DNA of 64,000 nt from a virus, in IMG/VR virus record IMGVR_UViG_3300009514_000019, positions 1 through 64,000 of that record; one strand, 5' to 3'. The notes under the pieces are model-generated. The model was not told the origin of the DNA. It saw only the letters and a list, made by a program, of their open reading frames with translations, and ran no database searches. Position numbers and translations under genes: made by a program. Positions 452 through 63,829 of the stretch are shown piece by piece (within the stretch, counting starts at the first letter, position 1; each line of letters opens with the position of its first letter).

Positions 452-1472
452 TTTCAAACTTTCTTGAATTAAATGTTTTTGTTGTTTTTAGTGAGTTTAT
501 AAACTCTTCCTTAGTTAATTCACCAACATCTTTTCCTTCAGGTAACTGTAATTTCCTCACTGTTGCTCCAAGCTGCCCTCCTTCCCTTATAAATTTAACT
601 GCACCCTCTTGACCTGCTTTATCATTATCGTACCCACATATAAGCAGTTTATCAAAACCTACCAATTTTGTCAACTGCTTTTCGGATACCTTTGATTTCC
701 ATGTGCATACTGGCAAAATACCTAATTCAACACACCACTGCCAACTCCTCAATAAGTCAAAATAACCCTCCAACACTAGTATTTTATTGTAAGGATAGTC
801 CTTGACAAAATTAGTCCCACCTAGTGATTCCGCAGCATTGAAATTAAAATAGTTAAAATACCGCTTCTTTTCCACATCTCCTGGTGGGACAGTCCTGCCC
901 ACCATACCCACACAACTTCCATCCTCATCATATGCTGGAAAGCAAATCCTAAAATTGTGTTTATCCCACCTTAAATTAAATCGTAGTGCAGTAAGTACAT
1001 CTACTTGCCTTCCTTCCAAATACTTACTGGCAATAGGATTTAATGTTGCTAGTTCATATTTCTCAATCACACTAGCAGGTACAATTTTAACTTCATCCTC
1101 AAAAACATCCAAATCATACTTATTCAATATCTTGTTGTATAGTCGAACAAACCTTGAACTAATACTTGGTGTGTCCACCTTCAGTACTTCGAGTGCAAGT
1201 GCTTGCACCTGTGGGTCATTTGTTTTTTGTCCATACTCCTGAAATAGCTGCCACAGATTGCCACATTCGCCGCAACTGTAACATTTGTAATATGTTTGTT
1301 TCTCATCATTATACCACACCATGCAGGATGGGTGGGCATCCTGCCCAGATAAATGAGTCCACCTGGCCATTGGGCAACTAATTAATATGTGATCTTGTTT
1401 TTTGCCTAATCCCTGTACTCCTTCCACGTCGATTATGTTACTCAGGTATTTCTTAATGTCATCGAGGATCAT
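444..1472 (-). CDS. DnaG-type DNA primase
   Basis: 342 residues. The N-terminus has a CHC2-like zinc-binding region (Cys33, then Cys64-x2-Cys67 in KCYSCGECGNLW). The C-terminal half has TOPRIM motifs: the acidic strand KILVLEGYFD near residue 230 and ICGYDNDKAG near 274, where the DxD-type acidic residues bind metal. It makes RNA primers for lagging-strand synthesis and would act with the DnaB-like helicase whose gene overlaps its start (1469-1472). It is shorter than bacterial DnaG, and I see no helicase-binding C-terminal domain. A 16-bp palindrome at 1193-1208 lies in frame and encodes VQALA. Confidence 0.88.
   Translation of the reverse strand: MILDDIKKYLSNIIDVEGVQGLGKKQDHILISCPMARWTHLSGQDAHPSCMVWYNDEKQTYYKCYSCGECGNLWQLFQEYGQKTNDPQVQALALEVLKVDTPSISSRFVRLYNKILNKYDLDVFEDEVKIVPASVIEKYELATLNPIASKYLEGRQVDVLTALRFNLRWDKHNFRICFPAYDEDGSCVGMVGRTVPPGDVEKKRYFNYFNFNAAESLGGTNFVKDYPYNKILVLEGYFDLLRSWQWCVELGILPVCTWKSKVSEKQLTKLVGFDKLLICGYDNDKAGQEGAVKFIREGGQLGATVRKLQLPEGKDVGELTKEEFINSLKTTKTFNSRKFEND
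1193..1208. repeat. Dispersed palindrome, TG centre, inside primase
   Basis: GTGCAAGTGCTTGCAC on the plus strand. Read on the coding strand it gives Val-Gln-Ala-Leu-Ala within the primase, in the linker between zinc and TOPRIM regions. Confidence 0.95.
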
Positions 1473-2734
1473 ATGCTCACACCTTGAACATCATCAAGTA
1501 TGCTTTTAGTGGCATCAAATTCCATGTCTACAAGATTCCAATTTATGCTTACCTGATTTACATTTGACTCTGCTGCTGAGTCTCGAACTTTAAGTATATG
1601 TACTTGCATCCTCCTCAACACTCGATCATCTGGCGATTGTTGAATACCCAGTACAACATCTGGGGCCATTACCCACTCGGCCCCATACCTGGCTTTCATA
1701 TCCATTTTACCCGTAGGGTCATCTTTACCTTGTTTAGTTGTTGTTTGTGTATCTCCATACTGATTTGTCACAACCCAAGGAATATTTGATTCCTCCGCAT
1801 ATATTTGAAGGTCATTGACTATTTCAACAGTGTTTTCCCAATGACTCTTGCTCCTGCCCGTGAAACGGTATCCACCATCAATCAAAACAATATCTGGTTT
1901 ATACTTCTTCACTAATAACGCAACATCTACTACTGTCCTTACTTTTTGCTTATCGACTAGTATAATATCTCCTATTGTTTTATCGTTTGCAACGCTATCC
2001 TCCCATTTTTGCAAATCTGCTGGCTGCAATACATTGTTGCGGAGTTTACCAAAACTTAATTTATGCCTAATTGCATCTAACCTGCGTGCAATCCTAATAC
2101 TTGGCATTTCCAAAGTAACAAGTAATGCACTCTTACTTTTTTTTAGGCAATGATCCGCCAAAATACACACCATCCAACTTTTGCCTTGGTTGGGCCTCCC
2201 AAGCACAACGTGTAGGCATCCATTCATTAAGCCTTGTATCTGTTCATTAATTTCCTCCCAAGGTGTTTCAATCCCATCAAATACCTTGTTTGCAACATTG
2301 TGCTTATATGTTTGGATCCTGTGTGCTGCTTCTTTGTTGTAAAAACTTACTTTATCAACCTTTTGTTGATTCGTGGTTTGAACAACCTGTACTAATTGCT
2401 GCAAAGCAGCGTCGGGATCGTTATTATCTAATGAATTCCCTACTTGCTGTAGGCTCTGTGTTAACTTAAATCCTAAATTCCTTTTTAGGATTTGTTCATG
2501 TAAATAAGGAAATGCTTCAATATCTTGTGGAAGGACATTTCCAAATTCATCAATAAAAGCTAACTCAGTAGGTAATGCATTAAACTTTAGCCCATACTCC
2601 AGTATCCAAGCAAACATGTCCCTTGCTTTGCCTGGAAGGAAATCATCAAGTTTAAGTTGCTCAAGTAATAATAAATCCTTGCTAGTTAGGAGTGATTTGA
2701 TTAACCTGGTTCCAAGTTGGTCAATCCCTTGCAT
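1469..2734 (-). CDS. DnaB-like replicative helicase
   Basis: 421 residues. A helical N-terminal domain (about 1-120) precedes a RecA-fold ATPase with Walker A GRPNQGKS at 179-186, Walker B-like IVLIDGG, and a C-terminal VTNQYGDT sensor-like strand. The order matches DnaB/SF4 helicases, which unwind the fork as hexamers. It sits upstream of the primase with a 4-bp overlap and downstream of an unknown acidic protein. A helicase-loader-like ATPase lies 1.2 kb upstream in the same operon, consistent with a complete replisome module. Confidence 0.88.
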   Translation of the reverse strand: MQGIDQLGTRLIKSLLTSKDLLLLEQLKLDDFLPGKARDMFAWILEYGLKFNALPTELAFIDEFGNVLPQDIEAFPYLHEQILKRNLGFKLTQSLQQVGNSLDNNDPDAALQQLVQVVQTTNQQKVDKVSFYNKEAAHRIQTYKHNVANKVFDGIETPWEEINEQIQGLMNGCLHVVLGRPNQGKSWMVCILADHCLKKSKSALLVTLEMPSIRIARRLDAIRHKLSFGKLRNNVLQPADLQKWEDSVANDKTIGDIILVDKQKVRTVVDVALLVKKYKPDIVLIDGGYRFTGRSKSHWENTVEIVNDLQIYAEESNIPWVVTNQYGDTQTTTKQGKDDPTGKMDMKARYGAEWVMAPDVVLGIQQSPDDRVLRRMQVHILKVRDSAAESNVNQVSINWNLVDMEFDATKSILDDVQGVSI

Positions 2735-3217: not shown

Positions 3218-3233
3218 GTGCAAGTACTTGCAC
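3218..3233. repeat. Dispersed palindrome, TA centre, intergenic
   Basis: GTGCAAGTACTTGCAC, perfect. On the coding strand its first G completes the TAG stop of the HNH gene; an AAAGGA ribosome site for the next gene follows. Confidence 0.96.
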
Positions 3234-5635: not shown

Positions 5636-5651
5636 GTGCAAGTACTTGCAC
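5636..5651. repeat. Dispersed palindrome, TA centre, downstream of promoter
   Basis: GTGCAAGTACTTGCAC starting 13 nt after the -10 box of the 5665 promoter, so probably at about +7 in the leader. This is an operator-like position. Confidence 0.96.
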
Positions 5652-6909: not shown

Positions 6910-6925
6910 ATGTAAGTACTTGCAC
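6910..6925. repeat. Dispersed palindrome, two mismatches, intergenic
   Basis: ATGTAAGTACTTGCAC. It differs from consensus at two plus-left positions only; the coding-strand 5' half is intact and supplies the G of the TAG stop of the glycosyltransferase gene at 6925. Confidence 0.85.
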
Positions 6926-7544: not shown

Positions 7545-7560
7545 ATGCAAGCACTTGCAC
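7545..7560. repeat. Dispersed palindrome, CA centre, intergenic
   Basis: ATGCAAGCACTTGCAC. Its coding-strand G completes the TAG stop of HNH copy 2; AAGGATGAAAT-ATG of the next gene follows directly. Confidence 0.93.
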
Positions 7561-8159: not shown

Positions 8160-8183
8160 AATATGTTTTTCCACTATTCAGGA

Positions 8184-10047: not shown

Positions 10048-10617
10048 TTATTCCTTGGTAAATATTCGTGTTCCACTTCCATATGAGTGAGTATCGTCAA
10101 ATGTTTCACATTTCCAGGCTGTTCCCAATCTTTCGAGCATGTCGCCTGCACTCAAATTATAGTGACCTGGCCACAAACTAGGTGCTGCATAGTTATCCAT
10201 AACAAGTGTTTTCAATGAGTGCAAGTACTTGCACAATAATAGTTCAAATATTTGTGAACGATTAAAACCCTCAATTGTGTCAACAGAAATTATTGTCACA
10301 TTACTTTTATCCAATATTTCAAAGTATTTCAGTATATCCTGTTCCTGGGATAATATGTTATATGTGATATTTGTGATATCACTATGGATTAATTCATTTA
10401 ACACTTTTGTTCCCCACTCATCACATGTTTCAACTGCTGTAACATAGTGACACCTTTCAGCAAAAAATAATGTGCTGCCACCTGTTCCACATTCTACTAC
10501 AATATCGTCCTTATTTATATATCTATCAAGTGTGTATACTGCTTCAGGGACTAACCAAGGAGTGTGGTTACTTAAACAGTGTTTACCTTCCCACCAATTT
10601 TCCTCAATTTTCAACAT
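10048..10617 (-). CDS. SAM-dependent methyltransferase-like protein
   Basis: 189 residues from ATG 10617 (MLKIEENWW). The Rossmann motif I VVECGTGGSTLFFA is near residue 40, followed by the motif II-like acidic end VTAVETCDEW. A later TIISVDTIEG and LVMDNYAAP fit motifs IV/post-I of class I methyltransferases. Substrate unknown; glycan-cluster context suggests a sugar. It overlaps the sulfotransferase stop by 14 bp. The palindrome at 10219-10234 is in frame and encodes CKYLH. Confidence 0.7.
   Translation of the reverse strand: MLKIEENWWEGKHCLSNHTPWLVPEAVYTLDRYINKDDIVVECGTGGSTLFFAERCHYVTAVETCDEWGTKVLNELIHSDITNITYNILSQEQDILKYFEILDKSNVTIISVDTIEGFNRSQIFELLLCKYLHSLKTLVMDNYAAPSLWPGHYNLSAGDMLERLGTAWKCETFDDTHSYGSGTRIFTKE
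10219..10234. repeat. Dispersed palindrome, TA centre, inside methyltransferase
   Basis: GTGCAAGTACTTGCAC, perfect. Read as Cys-Lys-Tyr-Leu-His in the methyltransferase-like gene, a different frame from the VQALA copies. Confidence 0.95.
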
Positions 10618-11134
10618 AATTGTCACGCCCACGATTAATTCCAGGATTGTATTTCTTATTCAATATTTTTCTAACTTCTTCAAAATCACACTCAGCGTTA
10701 ATGCACTTTACGAAATTTAGCCAAAACCATTCCAAGTCCTCCAAACGAACTGTTATTAAATTAGGAACAGTTGTAAGGTATTTATTGACACAATGATAGT
10801 ACGCCATCGCTACTTTTTCTGTGACTCCATGAGTCAGGAATACTTGAAAAGCCCATGCCTTTAAATACTCTGGGCATTGCTCAAGCAAGGATTTTATACA
10901 TGCTTCTTTTTCCCGTACTAAATGAACAAACCTTGCATCAGGATATTTATTTTGAAGCAGTGCAAGTGCTTGTACATTCTGCACCGCTACTTCAATATGG
11001 TTATCAGGGTACTCAAAATCATGCACTTGACCTGCAAATGTTTCATGTCCACAGGTATAGTTTTTAATTGTTTTACATGCCTGATAAAAAGTACTAGAAC
11101 CACACCGACCTGTTCCAACAACAAATACCCTCAT
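10604..11134 (-). CDS. Sulfotransferase-like protein
   Basis: 176 residues. The N-terminal GTGRCGSSTF (residues 7-16) is the PAPS 5'-phosphosulfate-binding loop of sulfotransferases. ARFVHLVREKEACIKSLL near 66-82 matches the 3'-phosphate-binding region with its conserved Arg and Ser. It would transfer sulfate to a sugar hydroxyl. At 176 residues it is shorter than most family members but both cofactor motifs are present. It overlaps the upstream glycosyltransferase stop by 4 bp. A one-mismatch palindrome at 10960-10975 encodes VQALA. Confidence 0.82.
   Translation of the reverse strand: MRVFVVGTGRCGSSTFYQACKTIKNYTCGHETFAGQVHDFEYPDNHIEVAVQNVQALALLQNKYPDARFVHLVREKEACIKSLLEQCPEYLKAWAFQVFLTHGVTEKVAMAYYHCVNKYLTTVPNLITVRLEDLEWFWLNFVKCINAECDFEEVRKILNKKYNPGINRGRDNYVEN
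10960..10975. repeat. Dispersed palindrome, one mismatch, inside sulfotransferase
   Basis: GTGCAAGTGCTTGTAC, one base off. Encodes Val-Gln-Ala-Leu-Ala between the two PAPS-binding motifs. Confidence 0.85.
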
Positions 11135-11873: not shown

Positions 11874-11889
11874 ATGCAAGTACTTGCAC
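11874..11889. repeat. Dispersed palindrome, TA centre, before glycosyltransferase
   Basis: ATGCAAGTACTTGCAC. The ribosome site AAAGGA follows directly on the coding strand. Confidence 0.93.
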
Positions 11890-11976: not shown

Positions 11977-11992
11977 GTGCAAGTACTTGCAC
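11977..11992. repeat. Dispersed palindrome, TA centre, in leader region
   Basis: GTGCAAGTACTTGCAC, perfect, 87 bp upstream of the neighbouring copy at 11874 in transcription order and about 75 nt after the putative 12074 promoter start. Confidence 0.96.
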
Positions 11993-13026: not shown

Positions 13027-14345
13027 AATGACTCCTCGAAACTTTCGATTGTGGCAGTTTGGATTTTAACAACACTATACCCCATGTTATCATAATCTTC
13101 CGACTTACCAATACCGCTACGACCTATGTTTTCAGCTAAATTTACCTTGGGGTTTAATCGTATCCAACCCCGTTTATGTAAAACATTCAGCACACATCCT
13201 TCCTGGTTTGTTTGTATTGCATTCAGCGAACCCTTCAGTACAGATAATTTATTATCGCTGACAGGGTATCCTTCACGTAACTCACAAATAGGAATTGAAT
13301 CGTACCATTTAAAAATAGTCCTGTGTGGACGCTCATTATACCTGCTAAATAAATAATCACTTTCATATTTGTACACAATATCCTTTATGTCATCCCAACA
13401 TTCCCTACTCATTGAGTACGCCCATAAGTTATCTATGTTTACTTCAACATAGCTACTTGGTGGTTCACTTACATTATACTGCCAACCTTGTACAATGCCA
13501 ACATTATTTTTGTATTTATTTTTAACCAACCAACTCCACAGGTTAACCATCATACCCAGGTAATTTGGTGCAACTATAACATCATCTTCAATAATGAACA
13601 CGTAATCAAAATGCAAATAATCAAATAGTTGCCTACGTGCATCAATTATGTTTTTTCCTGCACCAAAATTGCAAGGTCGGCAAACGATATTAGCATTAGG
13701 TAAATATTGTTTTAGTATTACAATATGCTGGGCACTGTCTATATCTTTGGAAATATCAGTAGGTTTATCCAAAAATAGGAACACTGGCCACTGTTTAGAT
13801 TCTGGGTTTAGTGCAAGTGCTTGCACACACTTTGTAAAATATTCCAACCTATTACAAGCAATCAACGCAATACAACACTCAGGGTGAATTGTTTTACCAA
13901 AATCAGGAAAATCTTCCCTTATGTCATATTTCGGAACTACATAATCTATTGGTATTTCATCAACATAGTTAACAGGTTTGACCTTACTAACACTTTCTTT
14001 CATAAGTTTCCTGGGGTTCCCCAATGTTTTCCACACAGGTACATTGCTGCCAACCAATATTTGAACATACCCACTAATAAAACTCCTGCCAAACCAACGT
14101 AGCTTCTTATCATCGTATGTTAAAATTGCGAAAATTTTACCAGTGTCGGGTTCAAAGATATTAAGTACTAATTTATTCCTGAGTTTTTCAAAAACCAATG
14201 TATATGGGTAAAGTTGGTCTCCCACAACAATATGTGTTTCAGTAAACCCCACCTCGCCAGTATGTTCATTGGAAGTCCATTCCCAGCTAGTTGTAATAAC
14301 TGTTTCTGCAAGTAATTGTTCAAACTCTTGAATTTCCATTTTCAT
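13023..14345 (-). CDS. Two-domain glycosyltransferase
   Basis: 440 residues. The first 150 have no recognised fold. From about 155 a GT-A domain begins with CCIALIACNRLEYFTKCVQAL, then VCRPCNFGAGKNI near 218 and FIIEDDVIVAPNYL near 246, whose EDD supplies the metal-binding DxD. The layout resembles GNT-I/GT13-like or GT2 enzymes. NDP-sugar transfer is well supported; the acceptor is unknown. It lies between a tail/baseplate gene and the paralogous pair. The palindrome at 13811-13826 is in frame (VQALA) inside the catalytic domain's first helix. Confidence 0.78.
   Translation of the reverse strand: MKMEIQEFEQLLAETVITTSWEWTSNEHTGEVGFTETHIVVGDQLYPYTLVFEKLRNKLVLNIFEPDTGKIFAILTYDDKKLRWFGRSFISGYVQILVGSNVPVWKTLGNPRKLMKESVSKVKPVNYVDEIPIDYVVPKYDIREDFPDFGKTIHPECCIALIACNRLEYFTKCVQALALNPESKQWPVFLFLDKPTDISKDIDSAQHIVILKQYLPNANIVCRPCNFGAGKNIIDARRQLFDYLHFDYVFIIEDDVIVAPNYLGMMVNLWSWLVKNKYKNNVGIVQGWQYNVSEPPSSYVEVNIDNLWAYSMSRECWDDIKDIVYKYESDYLFSRYNERPHRTIFKWYDSIPICELREGYPVSDNKLSVLKGSLNAIQTNQEGCVLNVLHKRGWIRLNPKVNLAENIGRSGIGKSEDYDNMGYSVVKIQTATIESFEESL
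13811..13826. repeat. Dispersed palindrome, TG centre, inside glycosyltransferase
   Basis: GTGCAAGTGCTTGCAC, encoding Val-Gln-Ala-Leu-Ala in the first helix of the GT domain. Confidence 0.95.
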
Positions 14346-17181: not shown

Positions 17182-17197
17182 GTGCAAGTGCTTGCAC
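17182..17197. repeat. Dispersed palindrome, TG centre, intergenic
   Basis: GTGCAAGTGCTTGCAC, 4 bp from the upstream gene's stop and just before the AGGAG ribosome site of the dioxygenase gene. Confidence 0.95.
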
Positions 17198-18659: not shown

Positions 18660-19493
18660 TCATATACCCCTTGTGCAAGTACTTGCACTGATTTTTTGTG
18701 CTCGCCATTCCTGTAACTTGTCAATTAAATAATTTTTTGATACCTTATACAAATCCTTGGTATTATCATGGAATAAACAAGCAGCTTCTTCCGGCTTGAA
18801 AATTAGTCCCGGCCAAGATTCCACCCCATAGAATGCCTGGTCTACTCTTTTCCAATTCCTTACAAATACACTGGCACATCGAAACCAATAAAAAGTACCT
18901 GAATAATGCCACCTATGATTTAAAGGAGTCCTGAAAGTACCATACTTCTTAAAGCTACCACATATTCCACGATCCTGTAATGTACCCTTAACTTGTTCCC
19001 AATTATTATAAACAGTTTCATACATTACGTCCGCCCAGGTATGGCAAACTGACTCTGGGTTGGGATGTGTGACTCCTTTACAATGCCCATAGAAAACAAC
19101 ATGGTTAGGATCATCAGTCATAACCATGTTAAGCATTTTTAAAAAGCTAGTTACCTCACGTAGCCTCTTAACATTTTGAACAAATACAAACTCAATATCT
19201 TTACCACCAAAACGATCAAATTTATCAATCACATTATCTGGACATATGAAAGGTTTTGTATCCCCATTACCAGCAGTGGCAATTGCCACGATCCTTTTAC
19301 CATTGAATTGATCAATACTTTTACAAACCTTTTCAATATTCCTATCCAACACCCACTCATGCTCCCAACCTAATGGGAGTACATGGTATAACAAATGTTT
19401 TACAACATTATCAAAAGGCAAATTACATAAATCAGGGTAATTGGCATGTGTTTTAAATTGTGACTTACGTACTGCTCCTATCACCCTACTCAT
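18660..19493 (-). CDS. Putative glycosyltransferase-like protein, paralogue B
   Basis: 277 residues, paralogous to the gene downstream over its whole length (PDLCNLPF, FNGKRIVAIAT, VVFYGHCKGVTH, HRWHYSGTFYWFRCAS, YGVESWPGLIFKPEEAACLF). Both keep the His/Trp-rich core, so both are probably functional. Its C-terminus SASTCTRGI is encoded by the palindrome at 18673-18688, which extends the protein past the region shared with its paralogue. The ATG overlaps the upstream stop by 4 bp. Confidence 0.55.
   Translation of the reverse strand: MSRVIGAVRKSQFKTHANYPDLCNLPFDNVVKHLLYHVLPLGWEHEWVLDRNIEKVCKSIDQFNGKRIVAIATAGNGDTKPFICPDNVIDKFDRFGGKDIEFVFVQNVKRLREVTSFLKMLNMVMTDDPNHVVFYGHCKGVTHPNPESVCHTWADVMYETVYNNWEQVKGTLQDRGICGSFKKYGTFRTPLNHRWHYSGTFYWFRCASVFVRNWKRVDQAFYGVESWPGLIFKPEEAACLFHDNTKDLYKVSKNYLIDKLQEWRAQKISASTCTRGI
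18673..18688. repeat. Dispersed palindrome, TA centre, at gene 3' end
   Basis: GTGCAAGTACTTGCAC, perfect, encoding Ala-Ser-Thr-Cys-Thr at the C-terminus of paralogue B. Confidence 0.95.
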
Positions 19494-19999
19494 GCTGTTT
19501 CCTTAACTGAGCTTATAGCTTTTTGCACTAATTCTTGTATTGCTAATTTACTCACGCCGGCTGGCAATAATTTTACTAACCACCTTATCCCAACTTGTTG
19601 CCACTTTAAAGCCCTACTGTATATATCATTAACTATATATTCCATATTTTCAATACATCCTGTAACACCCCATTTATTCATTTTTTCAGCAAGTGTATAA
19701 CATTCACTGCATCCTGCAAAACCCACACCCTTTAATATAGAAATTAAATTAGTACCTGGACCAGTACTTGCTGGTGCAAGTGCTTGCACTTTAGTATTTC
19801 CACCACAGCACCCAACAGTTTTCGGCCTTGAAGTTTGTTGAAAAACCACAGCAGTTTTATTTTGTGTGACTACCTTATTAGGTTGAATTTCGATATTACG
19901 TTTACTAACTTGTGTTTGATTGCGTGGTGGTAAATTACCTTCATCACACAATTTACGAACCTTGCTGCCCACCACAAATTTAGTGCAATCCTCATTCAT
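19490..19999 (-). CDS. Unknown Cys-containing protein
   Basis: 169 residues, family unknown. The N-terminal 60 residues are basic and low in structure. TVGCCGGNTKVQALAPAST lies in the middle with the palindrome-coded VQALA, followed by FAGCSECYTLAEKMNKWGVTGC, whose four Cys could bind zinc or iron. The C-terminus is helical and hydrophobic (VGIRWLVKLLPAGVSKLA). It follows a Cys-rich tail protein and overlaps it by 8 bp. Confidence 0.6.
   Translation of the reverse strand: MNEDCTKFVVGSKVRKLCDEGNLPPRNQTQVSKRNIEIQPNKVVTQNKTAVVFQQTSRPKTVGCCGGNTKVQALAPASTGPGTNLISILKGVGFAGCSECYTLAEKMNKWGVTGCIENMEYIVNDIYSRALKWQQVGIRWLVKLLPAGVSKLAIQELVQKAISSVKETA
19774..19789. repeat. Dispersed palindrome, TG centre, inside unknown gene
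   Basis: GTGCAAGTGCTTGCAC, encoding Val-Gln-Ala-Leu-Ala-Pro in a linker after a CCGG motif. Confidence 0.95.
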
Positions 20000-23019: not shown

Positions 23020-23035
23020 GTGCAAGTGCTTGCAC
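23020..23035. repeat. Dispersed palindrome, TG centre, intergenic
   Basis: GTGCAAGTGCTTGCAC between two tail genes, just after the upstream stop and before the GGAG ribosome site. Confidence 0.95.
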
Positions 23036-34616: not shown

Positions 34617-34632
34617 GTGCAAGTACTTGCAC
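34617..34632. repeat. Dispersed palindrome, TA centre, intergenic
   Basis: GTGCAAGTACTTGCAC, perfect. It supplies the G of the TAG stop of the tail terminator-like gene. Confidence 0.96.
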
Positions 34633-37044: not shown

Positions 37045-37060
37045 GTGCAAGTACTTGCAC
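37045..37060. repeat. Dispersed palindrome, TA centre, left edge of GC-rich module
   Basis: GTGCAAGTACTTGCAC, perfect. It completes the TAG stop of the 42-residue ORF and precedes the AAGGAG of the next gene. It marks the left border of the appendage-gene module. Confidence 0.96.
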
Positions 37061-40059: not shown

Positions 40060-40075
40060 GTGCAAGTACTTGCAC
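40060..40075. repeat. Dispersed palindrome, TA centre, right edge of GC-rich module
   Basis: GTGCAAGTACTTGCAC, perfect. Completes the TAG stop of the small membrane-protein gene at 40075 and is followed by AAAGGAGG for the first gene of the GC-rich module. Confidence 0.96.
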
Positions 40076-41216: not shown

Positions 41217-41232
41217 ATGCAAGTACTTGCAC
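41217..41232. repeat. Dispersed palindrome, TA centre, left of HNH copy 3
   Basis: ATGCAAGTACTTGCAC. Its coding-strand G completes the TAG stop of HNH copy 3. Confidence 0.93.
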
Positions 41233-41909: not shown

Positions 41910-41981
41910 CTTGTGATAAATACAACCTTGTAGTTACGAGTGCAAGCACTTGCACTTTCAAGATTGTATTATATCACAAAG
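41910..41981. repeat. Imperfect inverted repeat around palindrome and promoter
   Basis: Left arm 41910-41930 and right arm 41959-41981 are near-perfect reverse complements over about 20 bp, with a palindrome in the centre. The right arm contains the -10 box of the 41968 promoter. Confidence 0.75.
41940..41955. repeat. Dispersed palindrome, CA centre, downstream of promoter
   Basis: GTGCAAGCACTTGCAC starting 12 nt after the -10 box of the 41968 promoter and 40 nt before the HNH start; operator-like position. Confidence 0.95.
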
Positions 41982-45011: not shown

Positions 45012-45027
45012 GTGCAAGCACTTGCAC
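45012..45027. repeat. Dispersed palindrome, CA centre, at portal stop
   Basis: GTGCAAGCACTTGCAC. Completes the TAG stop of the portal gene; AAGGAA of the next gene follows. Confidence 0.95.
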
Positions 45028-46827: not shown

Positions 46828-46843
46828 GTGCAAGTACTTGCAC
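46828..46843. repeat. Dispersed palindrome, TA centre, between terminase and portal
   Basis: GTGCAAGTACTTGCAC, perfect. Completes the TAG stop of the terminase and is followed at once by AAAGGAG for the portal. Confidence 0.96.
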
Positions 46844-50684: not shown

Positions 50685-51272
50685 TTACTTTACTCCTAAT
50701 AGGCTAAAGAATTCTGCTTTTGCAGTACCTTCCTTAAACGCTCCGATAACACTGCTTGTCACCATCTCACCAGTGGATCGAATTCCCCTGCACCTCATGC
50801 AACTATGTGTAGCTTTTACAACCACTATAACACCTAATGGATCGAGTACTTCGTTTATTGTGTCCCGTATTTGTTGGGTGAGTCGCTCTTGTATTTGGAG
50901 TCGATGTGCAAGTACTTGCACTGTCCGAGGAAATTTACTTAGTCCCGCCACCTTTCCATTCGGAATATACCCAATATCAACTGACCCCCAAAAAGGCATT
51001 AAATGGTGCTCACATAAGCTACTAAAAGGAATGTTCCGAATAATAACAAGGTCATCCGAGGCTGCTTCAAATGTGACTTTAAGTGGTGCTTTTGGGTCTT
51101 GTAAGTACCCTTCGGTTAATTCACGAAGTGCTTTCAAGAAACGCAGCGGTGTTTTTTCAATATCTGGACTATCTTTCAGCCCTAGTGATTGAAAAAACTT
51201 TTTAAATACACTAGTGAAATAAAACTCAAACGAGCTATCTTTACCTAGCGAAGGTGAAGCATCTTGTGCCAT
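50685..51272 (-). CDS. folE: GTP cyclohydrolase I
   Basis: 195 residues from ATG 51272 (MAQDASPSLG). Zinc ligands Cys87 and His90 in SLCEHHLMPF and Cys158 in HSCMRCRG; substrate loop LSKFPRTVQVLAHRLQIQERL is intact. It makes dihydroneopterin triphosphate from GTP, the first step of the 7-deazaguanine (preQ0) route. It overlaps the queE stop by 28 bp. The palindrome at 50906-50921 encodes VQVLA within the conserved R(R)LQxQERL helix without disturbing it. Confidence 0.93.
   Translation of the reverse strand: MAQDASPSLGKDSSFEFYFTSVFKKFFQSLGLKDSPDIEKTPLRFLKALRELTEGYLQDPKAPLKVTFEAASDDLVIIRNIPFSSLCEHHLMPFWGSVDIGYIPNGKVAGLSKFPRTVQVLAHRLQIQERLTQQIRDTINEVLDPLGVIVVVKATHSCMRCRGIRSTGEMVTSSVIGAFKEGTAKAEFFSLLGVK
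50906..50921. repeat. Dispersed palindrome, TA centre, inside folE
   Basis: GTGCAAGTACTTGCAC, perfect, encoding Val-Gln-Val-Leu-Ala in a conserved helix of GTP cyclohydrolase. Confidence 0.95.
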
Positions 51273-51908: not shown

Positions 51909-51910
51909 AA

Positions 51911-52357
51911 TTATCCTTCCCAAGATGCAAAACAATTGTCCGTTTCATGCACAACAACCTTGATGACTTTTACTTTATATTGTGCAAGTGCTTGCACAAA
52001 CTCATCATATGTTCCAAGAAATTTAGCAATATTCTCAGCCGTGGGATTTTCGTGCATCAAGTAAACTTTTTGAACAACTTCCTTAGTGTGTTCAGTAAAG
52101 TGCAATAACGCATCTTTCGCTGATTTATCTTGCCAATTCAATATAAATCCATGATCGAAGTTTTTTTGAATCCAAGGATCGTATACTTGTTTAATTACAC
52201 TGAAATCAACAACCCTACCAATTTCATCTAAGTGCCCGTATGTTTGTGCAGTTATTTCAACATTATAATTATGCCCATGCAGATGGGAGCACTTTGATTC
52301 ATGCCCCATCAGGCGATGGCCTGCACTAAAATGTAGCTTCCTCGTGCAAGTTATCAT
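51911..52357 (-). CDS. queD: 6-carboxytetrahydropterin synthase
   Basis: 148 residues. Zinc ligands lie in HFSAGHR (His14) and HLHGHNYNVEI (His27, His29); Cys23 in KCSHLHGH is the catalytic Cys. VVHETDNCF at the C-terminus carries the usual catalytic His/Glu. It makes CPH4 from dihydroneopterin triphosphate. The 52376 promoter precedes it and the 51872 terminator follows it. The palindrome at 51982-51997 encodes VQALA near the C-terminus. Confidence 0.93.
   Translation of the reverse strand: MITCTRKLHFSAGHRLMGHESKCSHLHGHNYNVEITAQTYGHLDEIGRVVDFSVIKQVYDPWIQKNFDHGFILNWQDKSAKDALLHFTEHTKEVVQKVYLMHENPTAENIAKFLGTYDEFVQALAQYKVKVIKVVVHETDNCFASWEG
51982..51997. repeat. Dispersed palindrome, TG centre, inside queD
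   Basis: GTGCAAGTGCTTGCAC, encoding Val-Gln-Ala-Leu-Ala. Confidence 0.95.
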
Positions 52358-52375
52358 ACTTCATCTCCATTAAGT

Positions 52376-52404: not shown

Positions 52405-52416
52405 GGTATTCACAAA

Positions 52417-52680: not shown

Positions 52681-52703
52681 GTTATGCTACGTTTACCTTG
52701 TTT

Positions 52704-52847: not shown

Positions 52848-52855
52848 TTTACTCC

Positions 52856-53149: not shown

Positions 53150-54446
53150 TCCACATTCCTTTTGCTACTTGGAAAATTTCCCCAAAAAGTTGTTCGTCAT
53201 TTCCATATTTAGGTCGATTAATGATATAATCAGGTACGCATACTATTTCCGCTAGTTTTTTAAGTGTGGCTTTCTCCGACTCAACTACACAACTCATTAC
53301 ATATTTAGCAAACTGATAACCCAAGTAAGGCATACGATACTCTTTGCCGAACGCCATTCCGCCCCTATCAACTCGGTCAAGGTTAATTGCCCGCATGGAC
53401 TTAATACAGGATTGTCGTTCCACTCCCCTTGAAATAGAACTTAAACCTCTGAATTGTGGGTATCCTGCAAATAGCTCATCAGCCCCTTCACCGGAAATGA
53501 TTACTTTTGATTTTGCAAACTGTGCAACATACCAATTCCTGATGTATCCCCGGAACTTTACTTCATTTGGTATTGGGTCTTCCAAATGATATAACATCTT
53601 TGGCAAATCCTTTAGTATTTGCTCCTTGCTTACAACCCATATTTCATGCTTGATGTTATTTTCTTTTGCAAATTTTGCTGCATACCAAAGGTCATCCCCT
53701 CCAACAAAACTTACAGTATGTGCATTTATTTTTAACCCCAAATCCTTCATCATTTTTACTAAAACACTACTATCTAAACCCCCACTTAATGCAACATCAT
53801 ACCCTACCTCAGTGTGTGAACACCTACTTTTCACACTATCCCTTAGCAATGCCCAAGCAACTTCCTCATTAAAAAGTCCTGAGTTTATTGATAACTCCCT
53901 ACCTGTGTCCGAACTTATGCTATCATATTTACCATCCAATGCAAATACTTTCACTTGATTTGGAAATAATTCAATAGCTTTGCAGCCTTGTGCAAGTGCT
54001 TGCACTCGTTTTTCCGAACTAATAATCAATCGGTATTTTGAGTCCCACCCATAGTACAACGGACAGATTCCCCATTGATCTCGTAACATTGTAACACAAT
54101 TCTTTTGTGTGTCAATGATTACTATTGCATACTGACCTTCTAATAGGTGTTGAAAGTTCCTACCAGTTTTATATGCCGCTACAATGAAGTCAAGTTCTTT
54201 ATCGAAGCCATTTGCCTTTGTATTGTATATTTCACCGTTAAACAATACTATTAAATTGTCCTTGACAAAGGGCTGGTTTGAGTATTCAGACAGGTCATTG
54301 ATAGCCAATCGGCAATGCCCTGCTGCAAACTTTTTAGTAATGTAGGTAGCATGGTAATCTGGCCCCCTATGTTTTATTGAAGCAAGGAGGGTATCAATTT
54401 CAATATTATTTGTTGTTTCCCCGATAATACATACTATTCCACACAT
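53139..54446 (-). CDS. Asparagine-synthase-like glutamine amidotransferase
   Basis: 435 residues. Cys2 after Met is the N-terminal nucleophile of class II glutaminases; HRGPD and LFNGEIYN complete the glutaminase site. The second domain has the ATP-pyrophosphatase loop SGGLDSS at 221-227 and ISGEGADELFAGY. This is AsnB architecture at a slightly short length. In the queC neighbourhood it may instead amidinate preQ0 to an archaeosine-like base, as the fused Gat-QueC proteins do. The palindrome at 53990-54005 encodes VQALA between the domains. Confidence 0.85.
   Translation of the reverse strand: MCGIVCIIGETTNNIEIDTLLASIKHRGPDYHATYITKKFAAGHCRLAINDLSEYSNQPFVKDNLIVLFNGEIYNTKANGFDKELDFIVAAYKTGRNFQHLLEGQYAIVIIDTQKNCVTMLRDQWGICPLYYGWDSKYRLIISSEKRVQALAQGCKAIELFPNQVKVFALDGKYDSISSDTGRELSINSGLFNEEVAWALLRDSVKSRCSHTEVGYDVALSGGLDSSVLVKMMKDLGLKINAHTVSFVGGDDLWYAAKFAKENNIKHEIWVVSKEQILKDLPKMLYHLEDPIPNEVKFRGYIRNWYVAQFAKSKVIISGEGADELFAGYPQFRGLSSISRGVERQSCIKSMRAINLDRVDRGGMAFGKEYRMPYLGYQFAKYVMSCVVESEKATLKKLAEIVCVPDYIINRPKYGNDEQLFGEIFQVAKGMWNVN
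53990..54005. repeat. Dispersed palindrome, TG centre, inside amidotransferase
   Basis: GTGCAAGTGCTTGCAC, encoding Val-Gln-Ala-Leu-Ala between glutaminase and synthase domains. Confidence 0.95.
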
Positions 54447-54447
54447 G

Positions 54448-55074: not shown

Positions 55075-55163
55075 CGTATTTTCATCCAAATTGTGTAAAA
55101 CACTTTATATAAGATTATGGATAGCTCAACTACTTGTGCAAATGTTTCCAATATAACCTGCAT
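55071..55163 (-). CDS. Small leader ORF coupled to queC
   Basis: 30 residues (MQVILETFAQVVELSIILYK...). ATG 55163 has AAGGAG at 6 nt, and its TGA overlaps the queC ATG as ATGA. The middle is hydrophobic and may be a single membrane helix. It may serve as a translational leader for queC. Directly downstream of the palindrome at 55181-55196. Confidence 0.55.
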   Translation of the reverse strand: MQVILETFAQVVELSIILYKVFYTIWMKIR

Positions 55164-55180
55164 GTTAAACTCCTTTATAT

Positions 55181-55196
55181 GTGCAAGTACTTGCAC
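55181..55196. repeat. Dispersed palindrome, TA centre, after Dam gene
   Basis: GTGCAAGTACTTGCAC, perfect, 5 bp from the stop of the methyltransferase gene and before AAGGAG of the small queC leader. Confidence 0.96.
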
Positions 55197-55201
55197 TAAC
55201 C

Positions 55202-55675: not shown

Positions 55676-55696
55676 ACCATTCCCTACATTAACGTG

Positions 55697-55712
55697 ATGC
55701 AAGTACTTGCAC
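55697..55712. repeat. Dispersed palindrome, TA centre, between Dam and T-fold gene
   Basis: ATGCAAGTACTTGCAC. Completes the TAG stop of the QueD-like gene at 55712. Confidence 0.93.
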
Positions 55713-56113: not shown

Positions 56114-56118
56114 ATTTT

Positions 56119-56877: not shown

Positions 56878-56881
56878 AAAT

Positions 56882-57028
56882 TTATTCCTTAGTGCAAGTG
56901 CTTGCACACGCAGTTTTGAGCCAAGTTAAAATACGAACGAGGAGGCTGGGGATTTCCTGGAATGTGAAATCTTTTGGAACCTCTACAGTAACGAACCTTA
57001 ATTTACCTAAAGGTATGTGAACTTTCAT
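56882..57028 (-). CDS. Small ORF before dpdA
   Basis: 48 residues (MKVHIPLGKLRFVTVEVPKD...), ATG 57028 with GGAAG upstream. It ends CASACTKE, the last part encoded by the palindrome at 56892-56907. The AAGGA inside its last codons is the ribosome site of dpdA. A small beta protein or a leader peptide. Function unknown. Confidence 0.55.
   Translation of the reverse strand: MKVHIPLGKLRFVTVEVPKDFTFQEIPSLLVRILTWLKTACASTCTKE
56892..56907. repeat. Dispersed palindrome, TG centre, before dpdA
   Basis: GTGCAAGTGCTTGCAC. The TAAGGA of dpdA follows directly; it is also coding (Ala-Ser-Ala-Cys-Thr) in the small ORF upstream. Confidence 0.95.
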
Positions 57029-57031: not shown

Positions 57032-57712
57032 TCATTCTTCCTGGTCCATATTATTATTTGTAAATTTTTCACAAATAATTGCTAAACACTCTGCCGGTGC
57101 AATACTAAAGTCAGACATTTCAGTTCGTAGCTTATTTAATGCCTGATCTATAAATGGTTTTTGTGATAGATTAAATTGTAGGGTCAATCCACGGCTGTCT
57201 AAGTCTTTGTCACCTTTTGCTTTTTCTGGTGGCGTGCCTAGTGCATTGTCATCCGCTTCTGGTAAATGCATCTCTGCTGACAGCAAGGGGGCTAATTCAT
57301 GCTCCTGGAATCCTGTTAAAGCTAGTAAATTACTATCTTCAGCGTATTGTAATTCCTGCAAAGCTAATGTTAATTTACTGTAGTCAAAATCAGACAACCT
57401 ACCTGTTTTGTTAAGTGTGATCGCAAGTGCTTTTACCTGATCCTCATCACCTTCTACGGCATGTGCCCAAAATGTGGACCAACCCTTTTCTTTCATTTTA
57501 CGAAGGCGACCATTGCCTCCAATCACCTTCTTATTCTTCAAATCCACCACAAGTGTTTCGACTTGCCCAAATTGGTCTAAACTATTGCCTGTTGCTGTTA
57601 AATCTACCTCACTATGTGCATTTACATTATCCTCATCCTCAACAAAGTCAGCAACATTAAATTGCTGCGGGTCATGTACCTTAAATCCGGGTAAACTAGG
57701 TAAACCTTTCAT
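57032..57712 (-). CDS. ParB-domain DNA-binding protein
   Basis: 226 residues. The N-terminal NSLDQFGQVETLVVD, KVIGGNGRLRKMKEKGW is a ParB/sulfiredoxin-like nuclease fold (the GGNGR loop near 74-78 corresponds to the CTP-binding GERR motif of ParB). A helical region follows with no clear HTH. Acidic C-terminus. Such proteins in phages act in DNA modification, partition or nicking. It is one candidate to bind the palindromic sites of this genome. Confidence 0.7.
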   Translation of the reverse strand: MKGLPSLPGFKVHDPQQFNVADFVEDEDNVNAHSEVDLTATGNSLDQFGQVETLVVDLKNKKVIGGNGRLRKMKEKGWSTFWAHAVEGDEDQVKALAITLNKTGRLSDFDYSKLTLALQELQYAEDSNLLALTGFQEHELAPLLSAEMHLPEADDNALGTPPEKAKGDKDLDSRGLTLQFNLSQKPFIDQALNKLRTEMSDFSIAPAECLAIICEKFTNNNMDQEE

Positions 57713-58253: not shown

Positions 58254-58651
58254 TATAGTGGCCTCGTTATTTTTTGTTGCACACCCGTTCCTGGCAATAT
58301 GATTTTAGATTGTTCTTGTTTTTGTGATTGCTGCAATGCACCTATAATATTGTCGGTGTGCTCCTCAAGTCCTTTGTGCAAGTACTTGCACAAACCTTCC
58401 TTCCATTGCCACAAAGCATCGGGCCGATCCAGCCTTGGAATTGGCTTAGGATGTTCTGCAAGGAACTCCCACATTTGAGTTAATTTGAATATTTCTAAAT
58501 CCATTTGTACCTGCATAACACGTTGTGTTACCGCAAGTTGTGCTATAAATGCAGGGTTTACTACTCCTTGTTGATTTGCTGGTAACTTTACATTTGCTAA
58601 TAGAGGTACAATTTTTTCCATACAGGCATCAACAATGTTATCCATTTCCAT
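58253..58651 (-). CDS. Unknown helical protein
   Basis: 132 residues from ATG 58651 (MEMDNIVDA), AAAGG at 9 nt. Mostly helical (DACMEKIVPLLANV, AVTQRVMQVQMDLEIFKL). The palindrome at 58376-58391 encodes CKYLH. Family unknown. Overlaps the neighbours on both sides by a few bases. Confidence 0.6.
   Translation of the reverse strand: MEMDNIVDACMEKIVPLLANVKLPANQQGVVNPAFIAQLAVTQRVMQVQMDLEIFKLTQMWEFLAEHPKPIPRLDRPDALWQWKEGLCKYLHKGLEEHTDNIIGALQQSQKQEQSKIILPGTGVQQKITRPL
58376..58391. repeat. Dispersed palindrome, TA centre, inside unknown gene
   Basis: GTGCAAGTACTTGCAC, perfect, encoding Cys-Lys-Tyr-Leu-His. Confidence 0.95.
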
Positions 58652-58993: not shown

Positions 58994-59587
58994 TTATTGT
59001 CCTAGTGTTTTATTCATATCCTTTATAAATTCATCACAAAATGCCTCAAGTGCTCCATTAAAATTGTCATCAAAATAATTAGTAACTGAGTAATCAGCTA
59101 ACCTAGTTACTAGTCCATCACTTTCCCTAAAAACACCTTTGTTTGAATTGATTTTGAGTGTGCTTACGTGACCTTCAAACACATTGTGAATGTATTCATA
59201 TTCACAATCGAATCTATAATCACTTATTACCGGAACATACAAGGCGTGTCCATAACTGCCTTGAACAATGTCATCACAACATTGTTTAATCCAAAAAGTT
59301 GGTTTCAATGTCCTAAAAAATTCACCAACTTTAATCCATAAGTCAACAACATTCCCTACCCCGACTAAAGGAAGTGCTTCATCCCTCAATTCAGGATGTA
59401 TTTCATACTCCAGTCCTGACCTTGTGTTAAAGTACTTCCTACAAAATACTTTAAGGGGAAGTGCTATCGAAAATTGTTGTGCTTTAATACCTTTTTGTGC
59501 AAGTACTTGCACTATTTTTTGGGCTGCATAGTCCTTTCCCACGCGGGATTTATCTGCATGTATCATCAAAGGCCATGTAATATTCAT
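58994..59587 (-). CDS. Deoxynucleoside monophosphate kinase-like protein
   Basis: 197 residues. The P-loop-like ADKSRVGKDYAAQ (11-23) keeps GK but has Asp-Tyr where Thr/Ser is usual, as in T4 gp1-type dNMP kinases. ALYVPVISDYRFDCEYEYI follows as the nucleotide/lid region. It would phosphorylate dNMPs for replication. The deviant P-loop lowers certainty. The palindrome at 59497-59512 encodes VQVLA right after the P-loop helix. Confidence 0.65.
   Translation of the reverse strand: MNITWPLMIHADKSRVGKDYAAQKIVQVLAQKGIKAQQFSIALPLKVFCRKYFNTRSGLEYEIHPELRDEALPLVGVGNVVDLWIKVGEFFRTLKPTFWIKQCCDDIVQGSYGHALYVPVISDYRFDCEYEYIHNVFEGHVSTLKINSNKGVFRESDGLVTRLADYSVTNYFDDNFNGALEAFCDEFIKDMNKTLGQ
59497..59512. repeat. 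Dispersed palindrome, TA centre, inside kinase-like gene
   Basis: GTGCAAGTACTTGCAC, perfect, encoding Val-Gln-Val-Leu-Ala. Confidence 0.95.
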
Positions 59588-60628: not shown

Positions 60629-61236
60629 TTTTTTCCTAGTTCATTAAATAAAGACCTAGCAACGACTCCCCAAACTTTTCCAACTAACTTGCCTGCTTCA
60701 AAAAAGGGTGCTCCAGATACACCATATTGGGCACACATTTGATCTAGCTTTATGTCCAATTCACCAAGTTTATCAACTAATACTATCTCCCGATACAAGT
60801 AGCTTAGTATATTAGGTTTGTTCTTAGCTACATTATCCATGTATTTACTACGCTTGCCGGCTACCTCAAATACCTGCTCAATGATACTGAATTGTTTGTT
60901 CCGAAGGTCGAGGAAATTTTCATTTTGTCGAATACTAATGTATGCTTGCGTTATTTGAATGCTCTGCCTAATGTTGTTTAAGTATTGCTCAATATGTTTT
61001 TTATCTACAATACTGTTCATTCGCAACTCGTCCACTACCTCATATACCTTACTTCCAATTATTTGGTTACGTCGTTCCCTAATTATTCGAGTATTTTTTG
61101 GCAACCTTGTTGTGCAAGTACTTGCACTAATTTTATCTGCCCCATTTACAATTATGTAAGGTTTTTTCCTAAGTTGTTCACATACCTGGTATAAGATATG
61201 CTTAGTTGTTTTTTGTTGTATTCCTACAACTACCAT
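60625..61236 (-). CDS. Unknown protein
   Basis: 203 residues from ATG 61236 (MVVVGIQQK) with AAGGA at 8 nt. The N-terminal KPYIIVNGADKI strand is followed by a basic region and helices. The palindrome at 61112-61127 encodes ASTCT. The C-terminus is mostly helical (SYLYREIVLVDKLGELDIKL). No motif recognised. Confidence 0.6.
   Translation of the reverse strand: MVVVGIQQKTTKHILYQVCEQLRKKPYIIVNGADKISASTCTTRLPKNTRIIRERRNQIIGSKVYEVVDELRMNSIVDKKHIEQYLNNIRQSIQITQAYISIRQNENFLDLRNKQFSIIEQVFEVAGKRSKYMDNVAKNKPNILSYLYREIVLVDKLGELDIKLDQMCAQYGVSGAPFFEAGKLVGKVWGVVARSLFNELGKK
61112..61127. repeat. Dispersed palindrome, TA centre, inside unknown gene
   Basis: GTGCAAGTACTTGCAC, perfect, encoding Ala-Ser-Thr-Cys-Thr. 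Confidence 0.95.
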
Positions 61237-62550: not shown

Positions 62551-63350
62551 GGTTCCTCCTCACTCATTATTTCATGTAATACATTTCCATAAATCAATAA
62601 ACCAGGTGTGTATCCCACTAGTACTCCTGGACAAATTACTTTAACATCCCACATATATTTGAGGAAATAAGTATTGTTGATCCTATACTTGGTTACTGTT
62701 GTGTTCCCTTTATGTTTAACACTCCTTTGCTTTACCAACAATTTTAGCAACATATTAATTTCTGTATTTATTATTTCAATAAAATTTTGACCTAAATATA
62801 GTTTCGCTAACTTTAGGTCAATGTAATATGTTAGCCAAGTAGTGGGAAAAAGCCTTTGAACAGATTGAATGTAGTGATCGTATCCAGTTAATCCAGGGTC
62901 AACTGACATATTGCAAAATACATCTTCCTGCGGCAACTGTGCTGCAACATAGGTACTCAGGTCATTGAAGTTCCTGTGCTTGCATAATAGCATGAAATTA
63001 CAATATTGCTGTGCAAAAGTATTTGCTAATTTAAACTCCATATAATCTATGTTAGGATGCTTTGTAGGAGTATTTTCATACTTCCTTAAAGTGAATTTAC
63101 AAGTACCTTGGGTGTACATGCATCCGAACACAGGGCATTCAACCTCTTTTCGGCATTCTTCAATAGTATGTGATTCATCATAATCACCTGTTACAAAATT
63201 AGTTAGGTCATACTCAGTTGTTGAATATTGTTTCAACCCTAACAATGAGAAATAACTATTTGGTAAAGGAAGTCCCCCTATGTCGAAATTGCCTAACAAG
63301 CATTGTTCTTTAAACTTATTTTTTAACTCCATCCAATCACCATGCATCAT
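62526..63350 (-). CDS. Unknown protein with Cys cluster
   Basis: 274 residues. CRKEVECPVFGCMYTQGTCKF near 75-95 has four Cys that may bind zinc. The rest mixes helices (LANTFAQQYCNFMLL; EINMLLKLLVKQ) with strands. ATG 63350 has AGGAAG 6 nt upstream and overlaps the RNase H stop. No family recognised. Confidence 0.6.
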   Translation of the reverse strand: MMHGDWMELKNKFKEQCLLGNFDIGGLPLPNSYFSLLGLKQYSTTEYDLTNFVTGDYDESHTIEECRKEVECPVFGCMYTQGTCKFTLRKYENTPTKHPNIDYMEFKLANTFAQQYCNFMLLCKHRNFNDLSTYVAAQLPQEDVFCNMSVDPGLTGYDHYIQSVQRLFPTTWLTYYIDLKLAKLYLGQNFIEIINTEINMLLKLLVKQRSVKHKGNTTVTKYRINNTYFLKYMWDVKVICPGVLVGYTPGLLIYGNVLHEIMSEEEPCILGIEI

Positions 63351-63829
63351 ATAGCACTTCCTTGTTTCATCAGGGCAGTTGCATTTTTGTCACATATCTC
63401 ATTCCAATATACTCCTTGATGCCCTCGTACATGGACCACTTGTATGTTAGGTGTCCACCATTTTAGTAATTCAATCCACAAATCAATATTGCATACTTTC
63501 TTTCCAGTAGAGTTTTTCCATCCATTTTGCCTCCAAGTATTACTCCAATCAGTTAATCCTTTTTGAACATATTGGGAGTCTGTTACAATAAATTTAGGAG
63601 TAACATCCTTTTGACTACATGTTTTCAAACCCTCAAGCACTGCCATCATTTCCATGATATTGTTACTAACATCATTATGTAATCCTGCTTTACCAAATAG
63701 TAATGTACCATGTTTTAAAGTATGTTTTATTGAAGTTACTTCAATTTCAACACAAACAAATGCGTAAGCTCCTTTTCGATCAGTGTTGTTATTACAACCA
63801 CCATCAGTGTAAAGTGCAAGTACTTGCAT
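63347..63829 (-). CDS. rnhA: Ribonuclease HI
   Basis: 160 residues if it starts at ATG 63829 (MQVLALYTDGGCNN), which overlaps the upstream TAA as TAATG; GGAG lies 3 nt before. Catalytic residues are all visible: Asp in LYTDGG (8), Glu in NIMEMMAVLEGL, Asp in FIVTDSQYV, and His-Asp in VRGHQGVYWNEICDKNA. It removes RNA primers and R-loops. The start codon and first five residues come from a palindrome (63814-63829). Confidence 0.92.
   Translation of the reverse strand: MQVLALYTDGGCNNNTDRKGAYAFVCVEIEVTSIKHTLKHGTLLFGKAGLHNDVSNNIMEMMAVLEGLKTCSQKDVTPKFIVTDSQYVQKGLTDWSNTWRQNGWKNSTGKKVCNIDLWIELLKWWTPNIQVVHVRGHQGVYWNEICDKNATALMKQGSAI
63814..63829. repeat. Dispersed palindrome, one mismatch, over the RNase H start codon
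   Basis: GTGCAAGTACTTGCAT; the coding strand ATGCAAGTACTTGCAC supplies the start codon and residues MQVLA. Confidence 0.93.

What the first reader, a model, noticed from the sequence alone, without database searches (positions are those of the whole stretch)
1193..63829. A 16-bp palindrome repeated 38 times across the whole phage window
GTGCAAG-YR-CTTGCAC occurs at 38 positions located by eye (32 exact or differing only at an outer base), plus one eroded copy. A perfect 16-mer would not be expected once by chance in 64 kb. Spacing is irregular (75 bp to 5.2 kb), with 18 copies in gaps and 20 in genes. Dispersed sites in other phages (the 13-bp stoperators of mycobacteriophage L5) are asymmetric and lie mainly in gaps, so this palindromic, gene-tolerant set looks distinct.
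Basis: seen in the sequence. Interest (0 to 1): 0.95.

Follow-up and report, generated by a model that had tools for sequence, protein, structure and literature searches.

The report
Genome-wide ParB/Noc-like binding sites in phages
This phage has one 16-letter palindrome scattered 38 times along its DNA, its relatives in several bacterial hosts each carry their own altered version, and the sites are probably docking points for a phage protein built like the ParB/Noc proteins that bacteria use to organise chromosomes.

Summary
In detail: 29 exact, 37 with at most one and 38 with at most two mismatches, against 0, 0.05 and 0.48 expected. It is a property of a phage lineage, not of one phage. 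Relatives sharing capsid and replication genes each carry their own dispersed 14-16 bp palindrome: G001 TTGCAAACGTTTGCAA, G010 TCCAATNNATTGGA (100 sites), isolates SM1, DLP5, JP1, L338C, RcMenchie, HJ05, SIO-2, Ares1. The two halves vary independently, so this is not a hairpin. Sites are enriched in gaps, upstream of start codons and at orthologous junctions. ParB-N, LacI, XRE and small terminase fail as a universal binder. PHROG_17202, a family of unknown function, was found in all 20 tested motif-bearing phages complete enough to show it and none of the 5 motif-free capsid relatives tested; PolA and an SF2 helicase co-occur. Its core (AlphaFold pLDDT 91) best matches the DNA-binding domains of ParB/Spo0J bound to parS and of Noc. 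Best reading: parS/NBS-like sites of a stand-alone ParB/Noc-fold phage protein. Binding is inferred; whether it organises the genome or silences transcription is open; the gene lies outside this truncated record.

The parts
1193..1208 (.). 16-bp site, in primase gene
   Evidence: 0 mismatches
3218..3233 (.). 16-bp site, gap
   Evidence: 0 mismatches
5636..5651 (.). 16-bp site, gap, downstream of a TATAAT-like box
6910..6925 (.). 16-bp site, gap
   Evidence: 2 mismatches
7545..7560 (.). 16-bp site, gap
   Evidence: 1 mismatch
10219..10234 (.). 16-bp site, gap
   Evidence: 0 mismatches
10960..10975 (.). 16-bp site, in gene
   Evidence: 1 mismatch
11874..11889 (.). 16-bp site, gap
   Evidence: 1 mismatch
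11977..11992 (.). 16-bp site, gap
   Evidence: 0 mismatches
13811..13826 (.). 16-bp site, in gene
   Evidence: 0 mismatches
17182..17197 (.). 16-bp site, gene start
   Evidence: 0 mismatches
18673..18688 (.). 16-bp site, gene junction
   Evidence: 0 mismatches
19774..19789 (.). 16-bp site, in gene
   Evidence: 0 mismatches
23020..23035 (.). 16-bp site, gap, just before RBS
   Evidence: 0 mismatches
24770..24785 (.). 16-bp site, in tape-measure gene
   Evidence: 0 mismatches
27098..27113 (.). 16-bp site, in tape-measure gene
   Evidence: 1 mismatch
27173..27188 (.). 16-bp site, in tape-measure gene
   Evidence: 0 mismatches
27896..27911 (.). 16-bp site, in tape-measure gene
   Evidence: 0 mismatches
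33098..33113 (.). 16-bp site, in gene
   Evidence: 0 mismatches
34617..34632 (.). 16-bp site, gap
   Evidence: 0 mismatches
36496..36511 (.). 16-bp site, in gene
   Evidence: 1 mismatch
37045..37060 (.). 16-bp site, gap, just before RBS
   Evidence: 0 mismatches
40060..40075 (.). 16-bp site, gap, just before RBS
   Evidence: 0 mismatches
41217..41232 (.). 16-bp site, gap
   Evidence: 1 mismatch
41940..41955 (.). 16-bp site, gap, downstream of a TATAAT-like box
43611..43626 (.). 16-bp site, in protease gene
   Evidence: 0 mismatches
45012..45027 (.). 16-bp site, gap after portal
   Evidence: 0 mismatches
46828..46843 (.). 16-bp site, terminase/portal junction; the orthologous start has a site in G001, G003 and G009
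50906..50921 (.). 16-bp site, in FolE-like gene
   Evidence: 0 mismatches
51982..51997 (.). 16-bp site, in QueD-like gene
   Evidence: 0 mismatches
53990..54005 (.). 16-bp site, in gene
   Evidence: 0 mismatches
55181..55196 (.). 16-bp site, gap
   Evidence: 0 mismatches
55697..55712 (.). 16-bp site, gap
   Evidence: 1 mismatch
56892..56907 (.). 16-bp site, gene junction
   Evidence: 0 mismatches
58376..58391 (.). 16-bp site, in gene
   Evidence: 0 mismatches
59497..59512 (.). 16-bp site, in gene
   Evidence: 0 mismatches
61112..61127 (.). 16-bp site, in gene
   Evidence: 0 mismatches
63814..63829 (.). 16-bp site, in RNase H-like gene
   Evidence: 1 mismatch
57032..57712 (-). ParB-N-domain-like gene; considered as binder and rejected as the common factor
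   Evidence: absent from G008, SIO-2 and Ares1, which have the motif
1..443 (.). left end of the truncated record; the PHROG_17202-family candidate binder gene is expected beyond it (not in the window)
   Evidence: contig L014 extends the phage 4.1 kb further through PolA into a helicase gene; in relatives the candidate gene follows helicase, RecA, resolvase and exonuclease

Best explanation
The palindromes are genome-wide binding sites for one phage-encoded, sequence-specific dimeric DNA-binding protein. The best candidate is the protein family PHROG_17202, a conserved gene of the replication/recombination module whose core is predicted to have the ParB/Noc DNA-binding-domain fold without the N-terminal CTPase domain. 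Each monomer reads one half-site, so the sites work like parS or Noc-binding sites spread over the whole phage chromosome. Shown by sequence: the sites, their enrichment, the independence of the halves, the concerted divergence between relatives, and co-occurrence with the gene. Inferred: that this protein binds them, and what binding does (phage-chromosome organisation, KorB/stoperator-like damping of transcription across one-directional operons, or both).
For: Concerted divergence: each relative has its own palindrome at 6-100 sites, and motif similarity does not follow core phylogeny (rho -0.02). The two halves match no more often than independent draws (608 observed, 623 expected, z -1.6), so no paired stem is being kept. 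A centre left out of the model is nearly always pyrimidine-purine (W 44/44, G001 53/54, SIO-2 26/26, Ares1 25/25). Gap enrichment 153 versus 55.5 expected; start sites at orthologous genes shared 44 versus 21.8, p=0.0005. PHROG_17202 was found in all 20 motif-bearing phages tested that are complete enough to show it, including four isolates checked after the family was chosen (HJ05, TM16, SIO-2, Ares1), and in none of 5 motif-free capsid relatives. Three contigs found by the protein alone: L378 11 palindromes, L368 5, L373 unclear. Core model pLDDT 91; the first six PDB matches are all ParB, Spo0J or Noc, the top one the Spo0J-parS complex 4umk (prob 1.00, TM 0.62), with the Noc-DNA complex 6y93 at TM 0.63-0.64 by target.
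Against: Foldseek E-values are only 0.13 to 1, no ParB-HTH sequence model matches and hhalign is not significant. A PolA and an SF2 helicase show the same presence/absence pattern, and the genomes are not phylogenetically independent. Whole-protein or HTH distances do not track motif distances (rho -0.17 and -0.05); only the putative recognition helix ranks first among sliding windows (rho 0.17), and L368 breaks the simple helix-motif pattern. The window record does not reach the gene. G007 has a motif but no detected family member in a 59.5-kb fragment. Rhizobium phages L338C and TM16 lack the pyrimidine-purine centre.
Confidence: 0.62

Rival explanations
1. Classical dispersed operators/stoperators: a lysogeny or superinfection-immunity repressor of another fold (XRE, LacI-like or other), encoded in the variable region, blocks transcription at many points.
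For: Sites sit just upstream of ribosome-binding sites (13 within 40 bp of a start, 2.6 expected in the record); some asymmetric positions are oriented with transcription (G010 24:6, 12:1; W 9:1; all 11 G002 sites same way). DLP5 is reported to persist as a phagemid (PMC7326821). G001, G010 and G009 encode XRE-type proteins.
Against: No XRE match in most motif genomes, no LacI match above cut-off, no tyrosine integrase in 21 records and no serine recombinase above cut-off; about half the sites are inside genes, including the tape-measure gene. It may share the mechanism of the best explanation, as KorB does.
Confidence: 0.2
2. The ParB-N-like protein next to the small terminase gene (window 57032-57712) is a parS-binding CTPase and the palindromes are its parS sites.
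For: Found in 10 of 11 near-complete motif genomes first tested; the DLP3 paper notes two ParB-domain proteins in DLP3/DLP5.
Against: Not detected in G008, SIO-2 and Ares1, which have 21, 26 and 25 sites.
Confidence: 0.07
3. The palindromes act as RNA or DNA hairpins (mRNA processing, translation control or cruciform).
For: Perfect inverted repeats between stop codon and ribosome-binding site; G009 tolerates a 1-bp change of spacing.
Against: No compensatory variation between the two arms; many in-gene copies; in G002 one pair is mismatched in all 11 copies.
Confidence: 0.03
4. Host-encoded regulator sites (for example a LacI-family global regulator) collected by the phages.
For: Half-sites look like LacI-family operators (TGNAANCG), and the motif differs with phage and perhaps host (own knowledge).
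Confidence: 0.06

Closest known systems
Noc and its dispersed Noc-binding sites; ParB/Spo0J and parS (bacterial chromosomes)
   Same: 14-16 bp palindromes read by a dimer; many sites over the chromosome, in genes and gaps (Noc); predicted DNA-binding-domain fold of the candidate protein
   Different: No N-terminal CTPase domain seen in PHROG_17202 and no sequence match to HTH_ParB; half-sites differ from parS and NBS; phage genome; density about one site per 1-4 kb
KorB of plasmid RK2 (ParB family; dispersed operators)
   Same: ParB-fold binder with dispersed palindromic operators, many near gene starts; does both repression and partition (own knowledge)
   Different: KorB is a full ParB with a CTPase domain and about 12 sites; homology of PHROG_17202 to KorB was not tested
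SPbeta SPBRE / MrpR
   Same: Dispersed repeated element in a phage genome bound by one phage protein (PMC10516654)
   Different: About 10 promoter sites, 15-bp motif; MrpR is a tyrosine-recombinase fold; integrating prophage
Mycobacteriophage L5 stoperators and phiC31 repressor sites
   Same: 18-30 dispersed binding sites of one phage repressor (PMC4557955); orientation with transcription
   Different: L5 stoperators are asymmetric 13-bp sites and those phages encode integrases (own knowledge); a set whose sequence changes in concert from relative to relative, as here, was not compared in L5 or phiC31
Cluster K mycobacteriophage start-associated sequences
   Same: Repeats immediately upstream of start codons (PMC3203893)
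   Different: Other sequence and, as I recall, confined to start codons; no wide family with changing palindromes

Membership tests
ParB/Noc family (full protein) | ParB/Noc-type HTH DNA-binding domain fold | tested here: inconclusive
   Foldseek top six hits all ParB/Spo0J/Noc, prob 0.89-1.00, but E 0.13-1.0; no HTH_ParB sequence match; hhalign not significant
ParB/Noc family (full protein) | N-terminal CTP-binding ParB/Srx domain in the same protein | tested here: not met
   No Pfam match to a ParB N domain in 15 members at E<=1; no ParB-type CTPase box (GERRxRA) seen in the alignments; a separate ParB-N-like gene exists in many but not all
ParB/Noc family (full protein) | Binding to a 14-16 bp palindrome | not testable with these tools
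   Association only
L5-type stoperators | Asymmetric sites oriented with transcription | tested here: not met
   Sites are palindromic; only partial orientation bias
Temperate repressor/operator immunity system | Repressor plus integration or plasmid maintenance genes | tested here: inconclusive
   No tyrosine integrase in 21 records, no serine recombinase above cut-off; DLP5 reported as phagemid (PMC7326821)
LacI-family operator/repressor | LacI HTH protein in the phage | tested here: not met
   0 of 20 records above the Pfam cut-off
RNA or DNA hairpin element | Compensatory changes between arms | tested here: not met
   608 matched halves versus 623 expected

The most novel reading that the evidence does not exclude
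A lineage of 80-110 kb tailed phages carries its own chromosome-organising system: 20-100 parS/NBS-like centromere-type sites over the whole genome, read by a stand-alone CTPase-less ParB/Noc-fold protein, whose site and protein change specificity together from phage to phage.
Probability: 0.4. Interest if true: 0.88.

Novelty: new variant of a known kind. Interest (0 to 1): 0.76.

Why it matters
It would give phages of many hosts a genome-wide DNA-binding architecture comparable to Noc, MatP or KorB, and a natural set of matched protein/site pairs with different specificity for studying how ParB-type recognition evolves. It also proposes a testable function for PHROG_17202, annotated as unknown. 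Isolated phages with the system exist (Vibrio SIO-2 and Ares1, Rhodobacter RcZahn and RcMenchie, Rhizobium L338C), so the question can be taken to the bench at once. I found no description of these repeats in the papers searched on these phages, though the library is partial.

Tried and rejected
LacI HTH, XRE HTH (sporadic), tyrosine and serine recombinases, ParB-N-like protein, small terminase (recognition helix nearly the same in W and G012 although their motifs differ), and Pfam scans of about 40 window proteins for other DNA-binding domains. Mantel tests of protein against motif distance were uninformative or weak. Hairpin model rejected by independence of halves. An apparent match between the RKAxYL helix and TGCAA half-sites was tempting but post hoc and broken by L368. 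A scan of prokaryote genomes with the motif gave mostly scattered single hits.
Full report
Observation. The window is part of a 67,844-bp virus record with almost all genes on the minus strand: portal, GpA-type terminase with an intein, prohead protease, capsid, tape measure, DnaB, primase. GTGCAAG-NN-CTTGCAC occurs 29 times exactly, 37 times with at most one and 38 times with at most two mismatches; a second-order Markov control gives 0, 0.05 and 0.48. A two-half position matrix that ignores the centre finds 44 sites in the record, all with a pyrimidine-purine centre. Eighteen lie in gaps (7% of sequence; p=3e-10), 13 within 40 bp upstream of a start codon (2.6 expected), often between the stop codon and the ribosome-binding site. 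In-gene copies mostly begin at the first codon position (19 of 26; Val-Gln-Ala/Val-Leu-Ala).

Relatives. The portal led to L173 and L175, which lack this exact motif but have GTGCACACGTTTGCAC and TTGCAAACGTTTGCAA dispersed in the same way. Scans with capsid and terminase alignments gave more than 40 related loci. Whole contigs show a set for nearly every phage: G001 54 sites, G010 100, G009 63 (two spacings), G011 26, G016 25, G012 18 (GTGTCCC half), G022 7 (CCGCACA half), G008 21 (GTGAA half). G003, at about 45-57% protein identity in portal and terminase and with almost no DNA similarity, keeps the window's motif. Motif distance does not follow core-protein distance (rho -0.02).

What kind of element. 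If the palindrome worked as a stem, a change in one arm would be matched in the other. Over all variable positions the halves matched 608 times against 623 expected from independent halves (z -1.6). That excludes a conserved hairpin and fits a protein dimer reading each half separately. Sites at starts of orthologous genes are shared between phages twice as often as expected (44 versus 21.8, p 0.0005) although the sequence differs. Several asymmetric positions are oriented with transcription; because nearly all genes run one way, transcription and genome polarity cannot be told apart.

Isolated phages. Capsid homologues at 21-29% identity led to sequenced isolates. SM1, DLP5, JP1, L338C, RcZahn and RcMenchie have 30-56 sites each. 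The papers I could read on RcZahn and DLP3 do not mention the repeats in the passages found; the latter reports that DLP5 was isolated as a phagemid.

Which protein. Comparing 11 near-complete motif phages, only capsid, portal and a replication/recombination module are universal. The ParB-N-like protein, the small terminase, LacI and XRE proteins all fail as a common factor: ParB-N is missing from G008, SIO-2 and Ares1, which have the motif. One member of the module, family 71 here and PHROG_17202 (unknown function), is present in all, including SM1 by profile. It was then tested forward. Isolates HJ05, TM16, SIO-2 and Ares1 encode it and have 30, 27, 26 and 25 sites; Grayson, BillNye, CGphi46, psiM100 and Wofford lack it and have no such set. 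G004, first found through the motif, encodes it. Of three new contigs found by the protein alone, two have clear palindromes (11 and 5 in 20 kb) and one is unclear. A PolA and an SF2 helicase share the same distribution, but neither is a plausible reader of a 16-bp palindrome (inference).

Fold. AlphaFold of the full protein gave a well-predicted helical core whose best PDB match was Thermus Spo0J (prob 0.87). The core alone (residues 30-165, pLDDT 91) matched, in order, Spo0J with parS DNA (4umk, prob 1.00, TM 0.62), Myxococcus ParB, Spo0J again, two Noc structures and Spo0J of Thermus, and further down the Noc DNA-binding domain on its site (6y93) and SopB. E-values are poor (0.13 and up), no ParB-HTH profile matches, and profile-profile alignment is not significant, so fold similarity is suggestive, not homology shown.

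Conclusion. Best reading: parS/Noc-site-like docking points of a stand-alone ParB/Noc-fold phage protein, spread genome-wide. Shown: the sites, their non-random places, independence of halves, concerted divergence, co-occurrence. Inferred: binding, and function. For function the nearest precedents are Noc (chromosome organisation) and KorB (dispersed operators with partition). The lack of integrases, the phagemid state of DLP5 and the position before ribosome-binding sites fit KorB-like control of an unintegrated genome; the many in-gene sites fit organisation. The gene itself is outside the window: the record stops, and contig L014 extends it only as far as PolA and a helicase.

Caveats. Genome sets are related, contigs are partial, gene calls are mechanical, the helix-motif co-variation seen by eye did not survive as a test, and Rhizobium phages deviate at the centre.

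Noticed in passing
46843-49647: Large terminase subunit carries an intein with a LAGLIDADG-like domain; G001, G002 and G003 have similar-length insertions at the same place.
   Followed up: partly
50685-56907: FolE, QueE, QueD, QueC-like and a DpdA-like gene: probably a 7-deazaguanine DNA modification cluster; read by eye, only shared with G003 and few relatives.
   Followed up: no
3233-3898, 7560-8174, 41232-41900: Three HNH/AP2-like homing-endonuclease-like genes; each is bordered by one or two palindromes, so the junctions may be insertion places.
   Followed up: no
49644-50683: Two adjacent small-terminase-like genes, the second a shortened paralogue.
   Followed up: no
G009 26512-26731: Four palindrome sites spaced exactly 73 bp apart: a tandem array in one phage contig.
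   Followed up: no
L125 and L126 (Tannerellaceae MAG): Window-type palindrome in a 23-bp tandem array in a bacterial MAG, apparently unrelated to the phage set.
   Followed up: no
Halorubrum CGphi46, Methanothermobacter psiM100, Streptomyces Wofford: Other over-represented inverted repeats (CGACG-1-CGTCG, TGTAC-8-GTACA, CAAGG-7-CCTTG), not of the 16-bp type.
   Followed up: no
G007 (59.5 kb, 60% GC): Distant relative with 14 GTGCAAGCGCTTGCAC-type sites but no detected PHROG_17202 member in the fragment.
   Followed up: partly
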